Shown here piece after piece: positions 53,071-64,000 of a stretch of 64,000 nt of DNA. The number at the start of each line of letters is the position of its first letter. The stretch's first letter is position 1. Under the pieces are notes generated by a model that saw only the letters and a program-made list of their open reading frames with translations, ran no database searches and was not told the origin of the DNA. The DNA is from Actinomycetes bacterium (lineage in GTDB: Bacteria; Actinomycetota; Thermoleophilia; Gaiellales; F1-60-MAGs149), in the NCBI GenBank assembly GCA_025360225.1, contig JANYCN010000018.1:1-64000 (forward strand), written 5' to 3'. The position numbers were made by a program, and so were the translations under genes.

Positions 53071-55647
53071 CTACGGCACGACGACGCGCAGCGCCCGGCT
53101 CGGCGTGCCCGCGCCAAGGGTGCCCAGCGCGACGACGCGGATCGTCCATGTTCCCGGGACGAGTCGGAGCGTGACGATCCCGCGTGTCGTCCGCCGGACG
53201 ACACGGCGTCGCCCGGCGCTGGCGATGATGCGGTAGGCCGTCGTCCGTGCCGCGGCGATGTTGGCGGGCGCGGCGAACGTGACCGAGACGACGACGCCGC
53301 GCCGGCTGGCGCGGAGGCGTTGGGGAGCGGAGGCGCGCGCGAGCGTGATCGCGGTGCCTGCGTCGAGCGGCGTCGACAGCCCGGCCGCGTTGCGCGCGAC
53401 CACCTGGACGGCGTAGCCCGTGCCGGCGCGGAGTCCGTCGACGATCGCCGTCGTCCGACCAACGACGTGAACGGTGCGGCCGGGCCGGACGGTGACGTCG
53501 TACCCGGTGACGGGTGAGCCGTTGTCGGAGAAGGGCCGGCCCCACGAGACGACGAGCGCGTGCTCGCGGACGCCGATCGCCGGCGCGGTTGGGGGCGTCG
53601 GGACGTCGATCGGGGTCGCCGAGCCGGCGTCGAGCCACGGGGACGTCCCGGCGTCATCGACGGCGCGCACCCGGACGGCGTAGGTCTGGCCGTTCGTGAG
53701 GCCCGGGAAGGTGACGGAGGTGGTCGTCGTCGTCCGGGTGACGTCGCCTGGCTCGATGGCCACCTCGTAGGTGGGACGCGAGCCGTCCGCCGGTGAGCGC
53801 AGCACCTGCACGTGCATCGCGGTCGGGCCGATCGAGAGGGTCGCGCCGGACGGGGCCGCTGGTACCCCGTAGGGCGTCACGGCGGGGAGGGCGACGGGCG
53901 CGGTCTGTCCCCACGCGCTCGTCGCGACGATCGTGGGGGTGTACGCGACGCCTGGGGTGAGCCCGGTGAAGGTCGTCGAGACGCCCTCGGCGTAGAACAG
54001 GTAGTCGAGGTGCTGCGTCGCGCCGCCCGGCGTGATCGTCACGTCGAGGCCGTAGGGTGCGCCGGCGAGCGTGCCGGGGATGCGGGCGACGATGTTCAGC
54101 CCGAACCCGATCGGGGCCACGGTAGCCGTTGGCCCGGGCGGGACGCCGTAGGGCGCGGCAGGCGGGCTGCTCACGAGGCTTGGGCGGGACGAGCCGACAC
54201 CGTTCCGGGCAACGATCGTGAACGTGTAGGCAACGCCGTTGCGGAGCCCGTCAACGGTCACCGGGCTCGTGGAGCCGGTCACGGACCGTCCGCCCGGCAT
54301 GGCGATGACGTCGTAGCCGAGAATCGGCGACCCGCCGTCGTCGGGTGTCGCGAAGCCGACGGTGACGCCGTCGAGGGACGGCGTCACCGACGGCACGCCC
54401 GGGATCGGGGCCGGGACGCCGCCGACCACGACGTTCGCGACGGCCGGGGGCGAGGTGCCGAGCGGGTCCTCCGTCGTGACCGCGATCCGGTAGGTCGTGC
54501 CGTCCGTGAGCCCGGTAAGCACGACCGGACTGCGGCCGGTGAGGACGTCGGGTTGGCCATCGACGTGCACGCGGTAGATGGTCGCCATGCCGCTCTCCGG
54601 CTGCGGCATGAACGTCACGACCGCGCCGCCGCCCTCGGGCGCGACGCCGAGGGCGGTCGGTGGGTCGGGTGGGCGGGTGTGGAGGATGCAGCCGTTACCG
54701 CGGTTCGACCACTCGCTCTGAAGCAGGTAGCGGCCGGCACCGATACGCTGGTTGTAGGCGGTCGCCGGCGTCCCGTCTCGCGTGCCGAGCAAGCTTCCGA
54801 ACTTCCACGCGCAGAGGTCGCCGACCTCCATGTTGTAGAGGTTGGTCGTCCACCACCCGTCAAGGTAGGGGTCGGTCTCGGCCTCGATCAGCTCGTGGCT
54901 GATCACCCCGATCGCCGCGTCCTCGTTCGATACCGTCGGTAGCGTCGGTGTCGAGGAAGCGCGGCACCTCGCGCCCGGAAACCCGATCACGGCGTAGACC
55001 GTCCGGTTGCTCGTGAAGTAGTGGTATCCACAGAAGCCGTTGTTCGTGCAGAGGCTCGGCCCGTCGGTGACCTCGCAGGCCTCGAAACCGGGTGGCAGGA
55101 GGAGGACGACGAGCGTGGACCCGGCGACGGGCCAGCGCCGGGCAGCGACGAGGTTGGTCACGTGCGTGATGCCGTCGCCGACGTAGAAGCAGAGCTGCGG
55201 CGAGGGGACGGCATCACAGCCGACCGGGACCGGTGTGTGGTCGACGATCGAGCCGGCGAACCGCGTCGTCTGACCGGCGACGTCCCCGGCCAGGTCGGTG
55301 TACTCGCGCGCCACGGCGAACACGTTCTCGGCGTCGTCGGTCGCGCTCGCGACGTCCGATAGGAAGCCGTCGATCGCAGAGCGGTACGTCGATGGGAAGG
55401 CGGCGCTGCCGGGTGGCGACCAGTAGACGACGTGGACGGAGATCGTCGCCATCACCGCGCCGCCGTGGTACCGGACTGGGCCACCACCGGTGGTGGCTGC
55501 GGCGTGGATGCGGTTTGCAGAGCTTCGCGCACCCTGGATGATCGGGAGCACGTGCGGGTGAGGCTGCGTCGTCGAGGCGCTCGCCTCGCCTGCTCCCGCG
55601 AGGACGGCTGCCAGGAAACCCGCCGCTGCCAGCATCCGTCGCTTCAC
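53071..55647 (-). CDS. secreted EXORDIUM-like protein with fibronectin type III repeats
   Basis: An 858-aa protein. The signal peptide is KRRMLAAAGFLAAVLAGAGEASAS. Residues about 60-325 resemble the plant/bacterial PHI-1/EXORDIUM group, with VHVVYWSPPG, CFYVGDGITHVTN, CGYHYF, and GVISHELIEAETDPYLDGWW (H251, E252, E255), a possible metal site. Residues 335-858 hold about five fibronectin III-like modules, with recurring LT.G..Y...V.A....G and Pro-rich links. A cell-surface or released adhesin/hydrolase is likely; activity is unproven. The GTG start has TACGAT 6 nt upstream. Confidence 0.82.
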   Translation of the reverse strand: MKRRMLAAAGFLAAVLAGAGEASASTTQPHPHVLPIIQGARSSANRIHAAATTGGGPVRYHGGAVMATISVHVVYWSPPGSAAFPSTYRSAIDGFLSDVASATDDAENVFAVAREYTDLAGDVAGQTTRFAGSIVDHTPVPVGCDAVPSPQLCFYVGDGITHVTNLVAARRWPVAGSTLVVLLLPPGFEACEVTDGPSLCTNNGFCGYHYFTSNRTVYAVIGFPGARCRASSTPTLPTVSNEDAAIGVISHELIEAETDPYLDGWWTTNLYNMEVGDLCAWKFGSLLGTRDGTPATAYNQRIGAGRYLLQSEWSNRGNGCILHTRPPDPPTALGVAPEGGGAVVTFMPQPESGMATIYRVHVDGQPDVLTGRSPVVLTGLTDGTTYRIAVTTEDPLGTSPPAVANVVVGGVPAPIPGVPSVTPSLDGVTVGFATPDDGGSPILGYDVIAMPGGRSVTGSTSPVTVDGLRNGVAYTFTIVARNGVGSSRPSLVSSPPAAPYGVPPGPTATVAPIGFGLNIVARIPGTLAGAPYGLDVTITPGGATQHLDYLFYAEGVSTTFTGLTPGVAYTPTIVATSAWGQTAPVALPAVTPYGVPAAPSGATLSIGPTAMHVQVLRSPADGSRPTYEVAIEPGDVTRTTTTTSVTFPGLTNGQTYAVRVRAVDDAGTSPWLDAGSATPIDVPTPPTAPAIGVREHALVVSWGRPFSDNGSPVTGYDVTVRPGRTVHVVGRTTAIVDGLRAGTGYAVQVVARNAAGLSTPLDAGTAITLARASAPQRLRASRRGVVVSVTFAAPANIAAARTTAYRIIASAGRRRVVRRTTRGIVTLRLVPGTWTIRVVALGTLGAGTPSRALRVVVP

Positions 55648-55775: not shown

Positions 55776-58641
55776 ATGGGCGTTCGAGGAGCAGCGGGTG
55801 TTCTGGTGCTCTCGGCTGTGGTCACGGCGACCGCCGCGTCTCTCACGGGCATGGGGGGGGGGATCGGGGCGGGCGGTGGCAGCGACGGCGCCCCCGCCGG
55901 TGGCGATGAGCGCTCCGACGGAGCAGCTCGCGGCGGCGCTGGCGCGCTCGCAGGGGACGCCGGTTGAGGTGTCGTCGAGGACGACCCCGACCGAGCAGAC
56001 CCTTGCGAACCCGGATGGCTCGTTCACGCTGAGCATCTCGTCGGCGCCGGTCCGCGCGATGCGCGCAGGCGCGTGGGTTGCGGTTGACCCCACGCTCTCC
56101 GTCTCGGCCGACGGGCGGGTGCGGCCCTACGCCTCGGCGATCGATGTCTCGTTCTCGAACGGCGGCAGGGGACCGGCCGTGATCGTGACCGCGGAAGGCG
56201 CGACCGTCGCCTGGTCGTGGCCGACGGCGCTCCCGGTACCGACCATCAGCAGCGACCGCGTGACCTACGCGAGCGTGTACCCCGGCGTCGACCTCGTGCT
56301 CCGCGCGACGTCGTCGTCGTTCGCGGACGTCCTCGTCGTCCACTCGGCGCAGGCGGCAACGAGCGTGGCCGGGAAGCCGATCACGCTTGCGATGGCGATT
56401 ACGGGTGGCACCGTCTCCGCCGACGGTGGTGGCGGCTTCAAGGTCGTGAACGCCCTCGGCGGCGTGGCGCTCCGTGGCGACGCGCCGGCGGAGTGGGACT
56501 CGCGTGGCGCAACGGGCACGTCTGGCCCGGCCGCGCAGGCCTCCGTGGCGGGGCCGTCGGCGACGGTCACGGAACCCGGCGGAGGGCCGGTTGACCGCGT
56601 CGTCGCGCCGCTCGGCTCCGATCGCTTCGTGGGGCTCTCGGCATCCGTGACGGGCTCGTCGCTGGTGGTCACCGCTGCCTCCTCGCTGTTCAGCGATCCG
56701 GCTACCGTCTACCCGGTGTACGTCGACCCCTCGACCAGCCTCAAGACCGGTAGCTGGGCGATGGCCGACCAGTACTTCCCGACCGCGAAATACTGGAACT
56801 GGTCCGATGCGGGGACGCCGGGCGGCCAGGGCGTCGGGCACTACGCCGACACGACGCAGTACCCGACGGTCGAGAGCAGGCGACTGTACTTCAGCTTCCC
56901 GACCTCGACGCTGTCGAAGAAGGTGATCACGTCTGCCTCGTTCACGGCGACCGAGGTGTGGGCGTGGTCGTGCACGGCGGCCGCGGTGAACCTGTACGAG
57001 TCGCCGGCCGTCACCTCCGCGTTGACGTGGAACACGAGGCCGGCCTGGGGGAAGCTCGTCTCGACCAAGACCGTTGCGCACGGGTATCCCGGCTGCACGA
57101 CGTCGTCGACGGTCTCGTCGTCCCCAACTCTCGTCTCGTTCGACGCGAAGGCGGTCGCAGTCGACGCGGCCGCGAAGGGGTGGGGCACGACCTGGGTCGG
57201 CCTCGGTGCCTCCGAGACGACGAACTCCTGGAAGCGATTCAAGCACGACGCGACGCTCGTCGTCGTCTACCGCTCCGTCCCGAACGTGCCGACGATCACG
57301 AACCCGACATGCGGAGCTTCGCCGGGGCCCACGCACGCGCCGAGCGTGATCTTCAAAGCCAAGAATGTGGTGAGCCCGGATAAGGTCGCCGTGAAGGTGA
57401 CGTTCGATGTAGCCCGAGCCGGGGGGACCGCGATTGCAAACCTTTCGACCCAACCCGTGACCGTGACCCCGACCACGGAACAACAGGTTGGGCCGATCAC
57501 GCTGGTGGGCGGAACCTACACGATGGACGCCTACACCACTGACATGTCGGTGAAGCTCCTTCCATTGAGTAGTGCAAAGACACCAGTCTGCTACTTCCAG
57601 GTCGATGCGTCCACACCACCGTCCCCGCAGGTGTACCTCCCGGCAACCGGGCCATCTGGAGCGCCGGTTCCGGCCACGGTGGTGCTACCGGCCGGCACGA
57701 CCAGGTATGCCTGGACGATCAACCGAGCGGGTGCGGCACCGGGAACTGGATCCTTCGTCACTGGTGCCGGAACGCTCTCCTTGCCCGTCACGTTCCCGAC
57801 ATCGGGGAACGAGACGCTGTACGTGTGGAGCATGAACGGGGTCGGAACCGTCTCCACCGATCCGGGGTCCGCGGGGATCACGATCAGCGGCACACCGGCC
57901 CTGGCGCGGTGGGGCCTCGACGATTCGTTGCCGGGAGGCGCGGGGCCCGCGGACGAGGCCTCGGCGTGCCCGGCGAACGTCCCGCTTCGATCGGGCCTTC
58001 TGTCGGGCGGGGTGTCGTCGGTCGGCGGGCGCTGGATCGCGTCTGACCCGTCTGACCTGGCGTTGCAGTTCGCGGGCACGGCGGCCGACACGCTGGTGTC
58101 GGGGGCGATCGCGATGCCCGGCCCCGATGATGTCTCCGCCACGGCCTGGGTAGCCCCGAACGGGTTGGCCGGGACGGCGTTCGCGCTCGGCGCCCCGGCT
58201 GGCGGGACGCCGCTCGTCTCGGTATCGCTGACACCCGACCCGGCTGACGCGACCGTCTCGCGATGGACGGCGACGCTCGGCGGGGTCTCCGTGCAGGTGC
58301 CGACGATCGACGTCGTCGCGGGCGACTGGTACCACGTCACGGCCGGGTACTCGAGGAGCGATGGGCTGTTGACGCTCTCCGTCCTCCAGGTCGACGGGCT
58401 GCTGATCTTCCCCGACTCGGTGTCCGCCGTGATCGTGGCACCCGTCGTGGTACCAGCCCAGCTCGAGGCGACCGTGGGCGGCGTGCACGTGGCCACCGGT
58501 TTCGATCAGGGCTTCGTAGGGACGGTGGACGAGCTGCTCGTGTATGGCGGCTCGCTCAACGCCCAGCAGGTGACCTATCTGGATACAGCAGCAAGACCGT
58601 ACGGCACCAATGATCCCTGCTCGCAGGCACCGCAGGGATGA
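55776..58641 (+). CDS. secreted DNRLRE/LamG-type protein, signal peptide out of frame at a G10 tract
   Basis: ATG 55776 follows a purine-rich ribosome-binding site and encodes a signal peptide (MGVRGAAGVLVLSAVVTATAAS). A run of ten G (55853-55862) puts it out of frame. With nine G it would join the long frame RAVAATAPPPVAMSAPTEQL... to 58641, giving 954 aa. As read, that frame is open from GTG 55732 but without a signal peptide. The mature part has a DNRLRE-like region (DQYFPTAKYWN; RRLYFSFPTSTL; TWNTRPAWG), fibronectin-like segments and a LamG-like domain near the C terminus. The stop overlaps the Rhs start (ATGA). This is either phase variation or a base-calling error. Confidence 0.75.
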
Positions 58642-61600
58642 AGAGGCCAGCCCTCATGCGGGTCGGCGTCGCGATGGTTCTCCCGGTCGTCCTCGCGACG
58701 GCCGCCGCGGCGACGCCGTCGGCCGCCGCGCATACGCCAACCGTCGCGCGGCCGGCGGTCGCCGCTACCGCGGCGTCATCGTTGCCTCCGGTCGTGCGGG
58801 CGGTGCGTCCGACGACCCACCCGTTCCACCTCGTGCCGCGGGCACCGCGCTACCGGGTGGCTGCGGCTGCAGCTGTGACTCGGTCGCCGATCTCGGTCAA
58901 GGTCGTGTCGGCCGGGCATGCGCGAGCATCCTCGGTCCGCGTGCGGGTCTCGGTGTCCGGAGCGGCTGTCGCCCGGGCTCGCGGAGCGGGGATCGTCTGG
59001 TCGCTACGTCCCACCGTCCGGGCGAGCATCCGCGTTACCCTCGACCTCGCGACGATCGCTCCACGGTTCGGTGGAGGTTGGGGCCCGCGCGCGCGACTCG
59101 TCGCGCTCGTGCCGTGCGCCGGGGCGGCGTTGCGGCGTGATCCCGGGTGTCGCCTCGAGGTGCCGGTCGCGACCAGGAACGTTCGCGGACGCGTGCTCGT
59201 CGCCACGGTCGCTGCCGGGCCATCATCGGCGGTCACGCTGGCGGCGGTCTCCTCCGCGACGGGAAGCGCGGGGTCGTACGCGGCGACGGCGATGGTGCCG
59301 TCCTCGTCCTGGCAGGCCGGTGGTCAGAGCGGCGACTTCCGCTGGTCGTATCCGATTCAGGCTCCGCCGGTGGCGGGCGGTCTCGGCCCGACGCTCGCGA
59401 TCGACTACGCCTCGGGCAGCGTCGACGGCCGCGTCGCGTCCACGAACGTGCAGCCGTCCTGGCTCGGACAGGGGTTCGGGCTCGAGCCCGGCTACATCGA
59501 GCGGCGCTACGTGTCCTGCGCCGACGACCTCGCGTCGGGGAACAACGCCACCCACGCGACGCCCGACCTCTGCTGGAGGTCGATGAACGCGTCGATCTCG
59601 CTCGGCACGCACTCCGGCATCCTCGTCCCGACGACGACCGCGAACGTGTACCGGCTACAGGAGGACGACGGCTCGCGGATCACGCACGTCGGAACCGGCC
59701 CGACCGGTGGTGCCGCGGAGTCCTGGAAGCTCGAGACGACCGACGGCACCGTGTACACGTTCGGGCTCGGGAAGGATGCGCTGGGGAACGCGACCGGTAG
59801 CGCCTGGTCGGTGCCGGTGTTCGGGAACCAGGCGGGTGAGCCATGCTACAAGGCCGCGAACTTCGCCGGCTCGTCCTGCTCGCTAGGGTGGCGCTGGAAC
59901 CTCGACTCGGTCGTCGATCGCCACGGGAACGCGATCGGGTACGCCTACGCGCCGGAGACGAACGAGTACGGCGCGAACCTGAACACGTCGATCGTGTCCT
60001 ACACCCGGGGCGGCGTCCTGACGCAGATCAGCTACGGCCAGCGTGTCGGCGCGCCTGCGCTGGGCGCCTCGGCGCGGGTGGTATTCACGACCGCGCAGCG
60101 CTGCATCCCGTCTGGCACGATCACGTGCGCTGCGACGCAGCTGACGGCGACGACGGCGAGCTCGTGGCCGGACGTGCCGTTTGACCAGATCTGCACGGCG
60201 GCGCTCGGCGCGGTGCCGGCCGGCAAGGGGTGTCCGAACGTGCAGGCGCCGGCGTTCTTCACGCGCCTCATGCTCACCGGGATTGCCACGCAGGTGGCGC
60301 TCACCGCGAACGTGTTCACGGCAGTCGACTCGTGGGCGTTCGCGCACACGTGGCTGAACCCGGGGGATACGACGAGCGCGGTGCTGTGGCTCGACTCGAT
60401 CACGCGCACCGGCCTCGACGGCGGGTCGGTTGCCGTGCCGCCCGTGAAGCTGATCGCGTCGACGCAGATGCCAAACCGCGTCGACTCGGTGACGGACAAC
60501 GCGCCGCCGATGAACAACTTCCGGCTGATAGGGATCCAGAACAACGTCGGTGGGGCGACGTCGATCGTGTACTCGTCCCCGGTTGAGGCCGGGGCGTGCA
60601 CGCCGGCGTCGAAGCCGGTGCCGGCGACGAACACCCGGCTCTGCTTCCCGGTGTACTGGTCGGCGTTCGGCAACGTCGCGCCATCGTTGAACTGGTTCTA
60701 CAAGTACGTCGTGCGGCAGGTGACGGAGGACACCGGCACGATCGGCAGCACCCAGAAGGTCACCCGCTACGCGTACGTCGGAGGTGGAGCCTGGCGGTTC
60801 GACCGGGACGATCTGGTGCCGGCGAGGTACCGCACGTGGGGCCAGTGGCGCGGGTTCGCGACGGTCGATGCTGTCGTCGGCACTCCGAGGGTCGGCCCGT
60901 TCTCGGCGTCGCGGCAGCTGTTCATGCGTGGCATGAACGGAGACTGCGTCGACGCGACCTGCGTCGCGAAGAAGAGCGTGGTCGTCACGGACTCGCGCGG
61001 CGGGTCGGTCGTCGACCAGGACCGGATGAACGGCTTCCTGCGCGAGCAGATCATGTTCGGGGCCTGGAGCGACGCGACGATGGCCGGCTCGGCCGCAACG
61101 AGCGAGGAGCTCCAGACGCCGATCCTGGGCGCCGTCACGGCAACGGACGGGACGCATAGCGCCCAGCTGCTCGAGACCGCGAGCTCGAGCAAGCGGACGT
61201 ACCGCACGACGTCTGGCGGGTACCTCGAGTCGGACCTCGCCTACACGTACGACGCGTACGGGCAGCCGCTGACGATCGACGACAACGCCGGCGAGTGCAC
61301 GACCTTCACCTACGACACGAACCTCGCGGTCTGGCTGGTCGACCTCGTGACGAGCAAGGCGATCGTCGCGCGCCCCTGTGCCACGGCGCCCTCGGCGACG
61401 GTTGCCGACACGCTGAGCGCGACCCGCACGGTGTACGACTCCGCTCCCTCGTGGGCGGCGGCTCCCGGATCGGCGGTCGGCGATCCGACGCGAACGCTCG
61501 TGCTCGACGGCCCCGCCGCCGGCCCAGGCGCGTGGGTGACGAACGCGACGACGACGTTCGACGGTCTCGGCCGGCCGCTCGTGGTGACGGACGGGCTCGG

Positions 61601-64000
61601 GCGTGCGACGACGACGACGTACACGCCGGCCGTGAGCGGCCCGGCGACGCAGGTCGTCGTCGCGAACGCGCTCGGCCAGGCCACGACGACCACCCTCGAC
61701 CCGCTGCGGGGCCTGACGCTCGCGACGGTCGACCCGAACGGACGGCGCATCGACGAGGCCTACGACGGCCTCGGGCGGCTCACGTCCGTGTGGCTCGCGA
61801 ACAGGGCGAAGGCAACGCAGACCCCGAACGTCCGCTACGCGTACACGCTGTCGGCAACCGCCGGCAGCGTCGTCGAGTCGGACGAGCTGCGCAACAACGG
61901 CACCTACACGGCGACGTTCACCTACTACGACGGCCTGATGCGCGAGACCGAGACGCAGTCGCCGCTGCTTGACGGCACCGCCGGGCGCGTCGTCTACCAG
62001 ACGCTGTATGACGGTCGCGGGCTGAAGGCGACCGTCACCGGCCCGGTCGGCCTGACCGGCGCGCCCGCCGCGACCGGCACGGTGATCGCGGCCGACAACC
62101 AGGTGATGGACCGCGTCGACACGAGCTACGACGTCTCCGGGCGCGTGACGTCCGTCACGGAGCGCCCCGGGACGCCCGGCGGCTGGCGGTACCTGACGAC
62201 CTCCACGACCTACGACGGCGACACCGTGACGGTCACGCCGCCGACCGGTGGCACGATCACACGAACGACGGTCGATGCGCGGGGCAACACGATCTCGTCG
62301 GCCCAGTACGACGGCACGGCGTTCCTGACGAGCACGTACGCGTACCGGCCGGACGGGCTGATGACGTCGATGACGGATCCCGCCGGCAAGTCCTGGACGC
62401 GCTCCTACGACCTTCGTGGCCGGCTCGTCTCGACGGCCGATCCGGACGCCGGGACGACCCGGTTCACCTACGACGTGGCGGGCCAGCAGCTCACGCGGAC
62501 GGATGCCCGTGGCGTGCAGATCACGACGAGCTACGACGGTCTTGGCCGCCGCACCGGCGAGCAGCGCACCGACGGCCCCACGCCGGTGCCGCTGACGCAG
62601 TTCACCTACGACGCCGCCACGGGCGGCATCGGGCAGCTCGCGACTGAGACGCGCACGGTGAACGGGAACGACTACACGCAGGCGATCACGGCCTACGACC
62701 CGCGCTACAACGTGCTGACCTCACAGACCACGATCCCGGCGTCCGAGGGCCTGCTCGCCGGGACGTTCCCGGGGAAGTCGGCCTACAACGTCGACGGACA
62801 ACTCCAGTCGTACATCCCGCCGAACGTCCCCGGCCTCGCCGCCGTCGGCTACTCGTACGGCTACGACACGCTCGGGCAGCTTAAGTCCATGGCCACTGGC
62901 GTGGGCGCAATTGTGCCCGGTGTGCTGCACGACTACCTCGGCGACGTGTACCAGATGACGACGGGTGCGAGTCTCGGGCAGGGCGTGACGTATAACTGGA
63001 ACTACGAGACCGGCACGAACCGGCTCGTCGGCCGCATCATCCAACGCCAGTCGCAGCCTGGCTACACGATGAACCTGAGCTACACGTACGACGACGCCGG
63101 CAACGTCACGAGCAGCAACGACGCTCCGAGCGGCGTCACGGACGGGCCGACCGGTGAGACGCAGTGCTACACGTACGACGGGCTGCGTCGCCTGACGGCG
63201 GCGTGGACGCCGGCCGCGGCGAGCTGTGCGGCGGCGCCGGCGAGCGCTGCCGCCCTCGGTGGCCCTGCCCCCTACTGGCGCACGTATGGCTACAACAATG
63301 AGGGGTCGCGGACCAGCGAGACGGATAACGCCGGCGTCACGCCGACCACGACGTCGTACCAGTACGCGGCCGGCGCCCCCCACGAGCTCGCCTCCACGAC
63401 GACGGGCGGCCGCACGACCGGCTACGGGTTCGACGCTGCCGGCAACCGGACGACGGTCACGCCGCCTGTTGGCCAGGCGACGACGACGACGTTCGACGAG
63501 TTCGGGAAGGTGTCGTCCGTCACGAGCGCCGCCGGCACCGTCACCTACATCCACGACGCCGAGGGGCGCCTTCTGCTGACGAAGGTCGGCACGGACGAGA
63601 CGCTGTCATTGCCGGACGGTACCGAGGATCGCGTCACGAACGCCGTGGCGTCATCGACGCGGTCGATCTCGTTCCTCGGCAACGCGGTGACGGTTCAAAC
63701 CCCCGGCGGGTTCGTGAACATCGTTCCCGACCCGCACAACACGGGCGAGCTGGCGATCGACGACCACACCGACGCGATCTCGATCCGGCGCAGCCTGCCG
63801 TTCGGCGGGCTGCGCACGACGCCAACCTCGTGGCCCGACCAGCACGGCTTCGTGGGTGGGCTAGCCGACCCGGTCGCCGTGACCGGAACCGTCCACGTCG
63901 GCGCGCGCGACTACGACTCGGGCACGGGCCAGTTCATCAGCCCCGACCCGGTGCTCGACGCCGGGAACCCGTCCGGCTGGAACCCGTACGCATACGGCGG
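58638..64000 (+). CDS. secreted Rhs/YD-repeat protein (3' end outside window)
   Basis: Open from ATG 58638 to the window end (at least 1787 aa). A signal peptide (MRVGVAMVLPVVLATAAAATPSAAA) is followed by about 180 Ala/Arg-rich residues. Then comes the actinobacterial Rhs N-terminal module (FRWSYPIQAPPVAGGLGPTLAIDYASGSVDGR; GFGLEPGYIERRY). Many YD repeats follow (YDAYGQPL, FDGLGRPL, YDGLGRLTSV, YDVSGRVTS, YDLRGRL, YTYDDAGNV). At 63903-63952 lies the Rhs core end, ARDYDSGTGQFISPDPVLD, then NPYAYGG. In this family the variable, often toxic, C-terminal domain starts just after this point, so it is outside the window, as would be an immunity gene. It is translationally coupled to the preceding gene. 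Confidence 0.92.
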   Translation, partial: MKRPALMRVGVAMVLPVVLATAAAATPSAAAHTPTVARPAVAATAASSLPPVVRAVRPTTHPFHLVPRAPRYRVAAAAAVTRSPISVKVVSAGHARASSVRVRVSVSGAAVARARGAGIVWSLRPTVRASIRVTLDLATIAPRFGGGWGPRARLVALVPCAGAALRRDPGCRLEVPVATRNVRGRVLVATVAAGPSSAVTLAAVSSATGSAGSYAATAMVPSSSWQAGGQSGDFRWSYPIQAPPVAGGLGPTLAIDYASGSVDGRVASTNVQPSWLGQGFGLEPGYIERRYVSCADDLASGNNATHATPDLCWRSMNASISLGTHSGILVPTTTANVYRLQEDDGSRITHVGTGPTGGAAESWKLETTDGTVYTFGLGKDALGNATGSAWSVPVFGNQAGEPCYKAANFAGSSCSLGWRWNLDSVVDRHGNAIGYAYAPETNEYGANLNTSIVSYTRGGVLTQISYGQRVGAPALGASARVVFTTAQRCIPSGTITCAATQLTATTASSWPDVPFDQICTAALGAVPAGKGCPNVQAPAFFTRLMLTGIATQVALTANVFTAVDSWAFAHTWLNPGDTTSAVLWLDSITRTGLDGGSVAVPPVKLIASTQMPNRVDSVTDNAPPMNNFRLIGIQNNVGGATSIVYSSPVEAGACTPASKPVPATNTRLCFPVYWSAFGNVAPSLNWFYKYVVRQVTEDTGTIGSTQKVTRYAYVGGGAWRFDRDDLVPARYRTWGQWRGFATVDAVVGTPRVGPFSASRQLFMRGMNGDCVDATCVAKKSVVVTDSRGGSVVDQDRMNGFLREQIMFGAWSDATMAGSAATSEELQTPILGAVTATDGTHSAQLLETASSSKRTYRTTSGGYLESDLAYTYDAYGQPLTIDDNAGECTTFTYDTNLAVWLVDLVTSKAIVARPCATAPSATVADTLSATRTVYDSAPSWAAAPGSAVGDPTRTLVLDGPAAGPGAWVTNATTTFDGLGRPLVVTDGLGRATTTTYTPAVSGPATQVVVANALGQATTTTLDPLRGLTLATVDPNGRRIDEAYDGLGRLTSVWLANRAKATQTPNVRYAYTLSATAGSVVESDELRNNGTYTATFTYYDGLMRETETQSPLLDGTAGRVVYQTLYDGRGLKATVTGPVGLTGAPAATGTVIAADNQVMDRVDTSYDVSGRVTSVTERPGTPGGWRYLTTSTTYDGDTVTVTPPTGGTITRTTVDARGNTISSAQYDGTAFLTSTYAYRPDGLMTSMTDPAGKSWTRSYDLRGRLVSTADPDAGTTRFTYDVAGQQLTRTDARGVQITTSYDGLGRRTGEQRTDGPTPVPLTQFTYDAATGGIGQLATETRTVNGNDYTQAITAYDPRYNVLTSQTTIPASEGLLAGTFPGKSAYNVDGQLQSYIPPNVPGLAAVGYSYGYDTLGQLKSMATGVGAIVPGVLHDYLGDVYQMTTGASLGQGVTYNWNYETGTNRLVGRIIQRQSQPGYTMNLSYTYDDAGNVTSSNDAPSGVTDGPTGETQCYTYDGLRRLTAAWTPAAASCAAAPASAAALGGPAPYWRTYGYNNEGSRTSETDNAGVTPTTTSYQYAAGAPHELASTTTGGRTTGYGFDAAGNRTTVTPPVGQATTTTFDEFGKVSSVTSAAGTVTYIHDAEGRLLLTKVGTDETLSLPDGTEDRVTNAVASSTRSISFLGNAVTVQTPGGFVNIVPDPHNTGELAIDDHTDAISIRRSLPFGGLRTTPTSWPDQHGFVGGLADPVAVTGTVHVGARDYDSGTGQFISPDPVLDAGNPSGWNPYAYG

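What the first reader, a model, noticed from the sequence alone, without database searches (positions are those of the whole stretch)
55853..55862. Ten-G tract that switches off a signal peptide
With ten G the signal peptide and the 950-aa domain protein are in different frames; with nine they join exactly. Homopolymer slippage in exported-protein genes is a classic phase-variation mechanism. Because the Rhs gene is coupled by ATGA, both could be switched together.
Basis: partly seen in the sequence, partly recalled or inferred. Interest (0 to 1): 0.65.

Follow-up and report, generated by a model that had tools for sequence, protein, structure and literature searches.

The report
Repeat-switched signal peptides of Rhs proteins
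A run of ten G's breaks the reading frame between a gene's export signal and its main part, and the same uncultured bacterium carries unstable CT repeats at the start of five related genes for large exported toxin-like proteins, so it probably switches these proteins on and off at random by DNA slippage.

Summary
G10 (55853-55862) separates a signal-peptide frame (ATG 55776) from an intact 925-codon frame that is coupled by ATGA to an Rhs gene. Taken alone the tract is unremarkable: such runs are near chance at this composition, and long G runs in this assembly cluster at contig ends, so the exact length is unreliable.

The new evidence lies elsewhere in the genome. Only five (CT)n tracts of 12 bp or more exist in 3.24 Mb. 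All five (19-26 bp) sit at the start of large secreted DNRLRE/Rhs-type genes, four of them homologues of the window gene. Two are out of frame with the upstream ATG although the long frame is intact. Relative G003 (same family) has the same arrangement; 32 loci of more distant relatives do not.

Best explanation: a repeat-driven, phase-variable set of Rhs polymorphic-toxin/surface proteins in an uncultured actinobacterium-like lineage. It works like Neisseria opa (CTCTT repeats in leader codons) but in unrelated proteins; the window gene is the mononucleotide member, assembled OFF. MutS1 was not detected and NucS, which does not repair indels, is present. Switching itself is not shown: no reads or sister strains were available.

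The parts
55776..55852 (+). Start codon and signal-peptide codons upstream of the tract; in the assembled phase this frame stops at 55965-55967
   Evidence: signal peptide judged by eye from the sequence and by analogy with the paralogues
55853..55862 (+). G10 homopolymer, the presumed slippage tract (its first G is also the third base of an in-frame ATG)
55864..58641 (+). Long open frame (925 codons + stop): N-terminal domain shared with the paralogues from about 55906, C-terminal Laminin_G_3 domain
55798..55800 (+). Alternative in-frame GTG start with GAGGAG upstream; would give a product without signal peptide
58638..64000 (+). Rhs gene coupled by ATGA; runs past the window to contig position 65255 (L067:1255) with RHS repeats, Rhs core, PT-HINT and a short C-terminal tip; own signal-peptide-like N-terminus

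Best explanation
The window gene is one member of a set of large secreted DNRLRE/Rhs-type genes whose 5' ends carry slippage-prone simple repeats: five (CT)n tracts elsewhere in the genome and G10 here. Strand slippage during replication adds or removes repeat units. Because two of three lengths put the start codon out of frame with the body of the protein, each gene switches randomly and reversibly between made-and-exported (ON) and truncated (OFF), and each cell shows its own combination of Rhs/surface proteins. In the window the OFF state would also lower the coupled downstream Rhs gene by loss of translational coupling and polarity. Shown: tracts, positions, frames, homology, and absence of such tracts in more distant homologues. 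Inferred: slippage, reversibility, expression, coupling and biological role.
For: Only five (CT)6+ tracts in the genome, all at the start of Rhs/DNRLRE-type genes; four of these genes had been found by protein homology before the tracts were searched. Nominal probability about 4e-18 and under one tract expected by chance. By upstream ATG, C33, C45 and C88 are in frame, C56 and C82 out of frame, with long frames intact. Promoter-like sites upstream with the start codon between promoter and tract in C33, C45, C56, C82 and G003 C56. TCT is 5% of serine codons, so Ser-Leu coding does not explain pure CT repeats. G003, same family, has the same arrangement. 32 loci of more distant relatives lack such repeats. 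Only MutS2 found, NucS present; NucS repair does not correct indels (PMC8228993).
Against: No length variation was observed: no reads and no same-genus genome. The window tract is G10, not CT, and its length is doubtful. C56, C82 and G003 C56 have possible main-frame starts after the tract, and a promoter-like site overlaps the assumed start of C88. C82 does not share the N-terminal domain; it joins the set through its Rhs repeats. One further Rhs gene (C72) has no repeat at its start.
Confidence: 0.7

Rival explanations
1. The ten-G count is a sequencing or assembly error; the real tract is in frame, and this gene is simply ON and not specially variable.
For: Four of nine G9+ runs in the assembly lie within 20 bp of contig ends, nominal P about 2e-10, so the assembly handles long G runs badly. 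The gene is otherwise intact over 925 codons.
Against: Does not account for the CT tracts at the same place in five other genes, two of them out of frame, none at a contig end. A wrong count would not make the tract stable.
Confidence: 0.3
2. The repeats are protein-level features (Ser-Leu-rich signal peptides) kept for export, not switches.
For: In C33 and C88 the repeat lies within the hydrophobic region, in frame.
Against: TCT is a rare serine codon here (5%), yet the repeats are perfect CT. C56, C82 and G003 C56 are out of frame with the upstream ATG. Distant homologues have export signals without such repeats.
Confidence: 0.1
3. The window gene starts at GTG 55798 in the main frame and is made without a signal peptide; ATG 55776 is not used.
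For: GTG 55798 has a GAGGAG motif at good spacing and is in frame.
Against: The N-terminus so read (MFWCSRLWSRRPPRLSRAW...) resembles no relative; paralogues and the named homologues mostly show a hydrophobic export signal at this place, and the domains are of extracellular type.
Confidence: 0.08
4. The window gene is a decaying pseudogene: a one-off frameshift, no switching back.
For: As assembled, the signal peptide is cut off from the body.
Against: No other stop in 925 codons and an intact coupled Rhs gene; the break falls exactly in a homopolymer, at the place where the paralogues carry CT repeats.
Confidence: 0.12

Closest known systems
Neisseria opa genes (CTCTT coding repeats in the leader-peptide codons; PMC3960869)
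   Same: Pyrimidine repeat in or next to signal-peptide codons, in several paralogues of one genome, mixed in-frame and out-of-frame states.
   Different: Unit is CT (or G) instead of CTCTT; the proteins are DNRLRE/Rhs-type, not outer-membrane Opa; the lineage is unrelated; switching is not demonstrated here.
WapA/Rhs polymorphic toxins of Gram-positive bacteria (e.g. Streptococcus suis WapA with DNRLRE, DUF6531, Rhs; PMC12704120)
   Same: Signal peptide, DNRLRE-type N-terminal region, Rhs repeats and core, variable C-terminal tip.
   Different: Simple repeats at the start; in the window the N-terminal part and the Rhs part are two coupled genes. No repeat switching of WapA/Rhs was found in the papers searched.
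Homopolymer frameshifting in Mycobacterium tuberculosis (glpK and others; PMC11868660)
   Same: G/C homopolymer indels in an actinobacterium; the G10 here is of this type.
   Different: There tracts lie in scattered genes, with rates below classical phase variation and unproven reversibility; here long dinucleotide tracts are confined to one class of secreted proteins.

Membership tests
SSR-mediated phase-variable gene (contingency locus) | Simple repeat whose unit is not a multiple of three, placed so that its length sets the reading frame of an otherwise intact gene | tested here: met
   G10 in the window; CT tracts in C33, C45, C56, C88, C82 and G003 C56; for C56, C82 and G003 C56 a start after the tract is also possible
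SSR-mediated phase-variable gene (contingency locus) | Repeats concentrated in surface or secreted protein genes beyond chance | tested here: met
   5 of 5 (CT)6+ tracts of the genome
SSR-mediated phase-variable gene (contingency locus) | High-frequency reversible length change with change of expression | not testable with these tools
   No reads, sister strains or expression data; no same-genus genome among the relatives
Neisseria opa family | CTCTT repeats ahead of an Opa outer-membrane protein | tested here: not met
   Different proteins and repeat unit; the likeness is of mechanism only
Rhs/WapA polymorphic toxin | RHS/YD repeats and Rhs-associated core | tested here: met
   Window Rhs gene and C88
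Rhs/WapA polymorphic toxin | Pretoxin/HINT or toxin tip at the C-terminus | tested here: met
   PT-HINT in the window's Rhs gene, phospholipase A2-like tip in C88; the window's own tip has no family match
Rhs/WapA polymorphic toxin | Cognate immunity gene directly downstream | tested here: inconclusive
   A small ORF overlaps and follows the Rhs stop (L067:1207-1692); not matched to any immunity family
DNRLRE-domain protein | Match to NF033679 over its cut-off | tested here: not met
   C88, C33 and G003 C56 match; the window protein does not, although it is homologous to them

The most novel reading that the evidence does not exclude
An uncultured actinobacterium-like lineage has independently evolved an opa-like multi-gene phase-variation system (CT or G repeats in or just before signal-peptide codons) that randomly arms and disarms a repertoire of Rhs/WapA-type polymorphic toxins and surface proteins, so that genetically near-identical neighbours differ in contact weaponry; its mismatch repair, which does not correct indels, permits this.
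Probability: 0.55. Interest if true: 0.78.

Novelty: new variant of a known kind. Interest (0 to 1): 0.66.

Why it matters
Repeat-driven phase variation is known mostly from small-genome, host-adapted pathogens (PMC11475388). Dedicated dinucleotide switches at the start of Rhs-type toxin/surface genes in an uncultured actinobacterium-like lineage were not found in the literature searched. If true, it makes a question testable: why switch an antibacterial weapon at random, and what happens to immunity when it is off? It also warns that gene callers will mis-start such genes, and that metagenome assemblies hide their state.

Tried and rejected
Rarity of the G10 tract as evidence: rejected, shuffles and a Markov model do not make it exceptional. 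Genome-wide excess of G tracts: rejected (about 49 G9 words expected, 25 seen), and 4 of 9 runs abut contig ends. CT-tract switching as a general feature of the order or class: rejected; the tracts read in G041, G055, G060, G078, G097 and in the class relatives look intergenic, adapter-linked (G220), part of a dispersed element (G327) or uninformative. Repeats as a general feature of the protein family: rejected; Amycolatopsis, Brachybacterium, Cellulomonas and class relatives show no dinucleotide repeat over 8 bp and no G run over 8. Other dinucleotides: (GT)6 absent. Alignment A1 was too divergent for the genome scan, so a three-row alignment was used.

Full report
Observation. Ten G lie at 55853-55862 and are the only G8+ run in the window. 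ATG 55776 opens a typical export-signal sequence that enters the tract and, in the assembled phase, stops after 63 codons. The 925 codons that follow in another phase (55864-58641) have no stop and end in a TGA that overlaps the ATG of an Rhs gene. No ATG in the main frame precedes the tract; GTG 55798 has an SD-like GAGGAG but would give a protein without a signal peptide. As a number the tract is not remarkable.

What the genes are. The main frame carries a Laminin_G_3 domain near its C-terminal end and an N-terminal domain shared with four other genes of the same genome (BLASTP E 2e-26 to the C88 copy, starting about 45 bases after the tract). Two of these paralogues, C33 and C88, and the homologue in relative G003 match the DNRLRE model; the window gene itself does not. 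C88 continues into Rhs repeats, Rhs core and a phospholipase A2-like tip. The window's Rhs gene has RHS repeats, Rhs core, a PT-HINT domain and a short tip, and a signal-peptide-like N-terminus of its own. The set resembles Gram-positive WapA/Rhs polymorphic toxins with an N-terminal DNRLRE-containing wall-binding region (PMC12704120).

The decisive context. Translating the 5' ends of the paralogues showed CT repeats in the signal-peptide region. A genome-wide search for (CT)6 on both strands found exactly five tracts: C33 20 bp, C45 22 bp, C56 24 bp, C88 19 bp, that is, the four paralogues found before by protein search, and C82 26 bp, which begins a 2466-codon Rhs frame. In a first-order model fewer than one such run is expected in the genome, and the chance that five fall in the 5' 150 bp of seven such genes is nominally about 4e-18 (nominal because the gene set was chosen after seeing part of the pattern). 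No (GT)6 exists. One more Rhs gene, C72 (4225 codons), has no repeat at its start.

ON and OFF. In C33, C45 and C88 an upstream ATG is in frame with the long frame; in C56, C82 and the window gene it is not, yet the long frames are intact. Near-consensus TTGAC-17/18 promoter-like sites lie 65-111 bp upstream of the tract, with the start codon between, in C33, C45, C56, C82 and G003 C56. TCT is used for 5% of serines, so the perfect CT repeats are not explained by Ser-Leu coding. Caveats: C56, C82 and G003 C56 have possible main-frame starts after the tract (best in C82, ATG with GAGGAG), and a promoter-like site overlaps the assumed C88 start.

Relatives. In G003 (same family, another genus) both (CT)8+ tracts lie at gene starts: an Rhs/DNRLRE homologue assembled OFF, and a secreted protein with only a sub-threshold protease-family match, with the tract inside its signal peptide, ON. 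Named members from Amycolatopsis, Brachybacterium, Cellulomonas, Oerskovia and Hamadaea, G022 and the other class relatives (some of these matches do not reach the N-terminus, so their start region was placed by extrapolation) show no such repeat. CT tracts in other order and class genomes look intergenic or uninformative. So the trait is confined, so far, to this family-level group.

Mechanism. The arrangement matches classical slipped-strand phase variation at leader codons, best known from opa of Neisseria (CTCTT repeats; PMC3960869). The genome's only MutS-type match is MutS2, and it has NucS, whose repair pathway cannot correct indels (PMC8228993): a permissive setting for repeats. Known actinobacterial cases are homopolymers in M. 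tuberculosis, with lower rates and unproven reversibility (PMC11868660). Searches for repeat-switched Rhs/WapA toxins found none, within a library limited to open-licence papers.

The window member. G10 is the mononucleotide counterpart at the same place, but its length is the least trustworthy: four of nine G9+ runs in this assembly abut contig ends. I put the CT family as switches at about 0.8, the window G10 as a working switch at about 0.6, and a wrong assembled length at about 0.3 (these overlap). Coupled switching of the Rhs gene is plausible from the ATGA overlap and about 2.7 kb of untranslated message in the OFF state, but is inference.

Limits. No reads, same-genus genome or expression data were available, so variation and reversibility are untested. 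The host's name is not known; the named homologues are Actinobacteria, so 'actinobacterium-like' is an inference. Signal peptides were judged by eye. The link to toxin function rests on domain matches.

Noticed in passing
L069:7614-7622 (G000:C53:15613-15621): On the minus strand a C9 tract sits between an SD-like AAGGAG and the ATG of a 2502-codon secreted protein with DUF7743/Ig-like matches: a possible translation-spacing switch for another surface protein.
   Followed up: partly
L081:1501-1517 (G003:C30:96436): 17-bp CT tract inside the signal peptide of a secreted protein with a weak, sub-threshold match to a serine-protease family; not an Rhs homologue.
   Followed up: partly
L173, L177, L182, L188, L193, L198 (G327): A dispersed non-coding element: hairpin ATGCGTCAGCATCACTGACGCAT followed by (TC)11-13 and a GGCCAGCTTCTAGG-like tail, in about 20 places of one genome.
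   Followed up: partly
G000 contigs C30, C40, C43, C76: Four of the nine G9+ runs of the assembly lie within 20 bp of contig ends, one of them 17 G long at the very end: assembly trouble at G runs.
   Followed up: yes
L005:1501-1509 (G000:C35:12907): G9 inside a frame that looks like dnaX (N-terminus MSALYRKYRPQDLDDVVGQ; name from memory, not tested), a gene known for slippage in other bacteria.
   Followed up: no
L147:54-73 (G220:C5): Sequence next to a CT tract at this contig start resembles an Illumina adapter: likely contamination.
   Followed up: no
window 53071-55647: Divergent 858-codon secreted-type gene with fn3 domains and a Phi_1 (phosphate-induced protein 1) match, next to the switch gene.
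   Followed up: no
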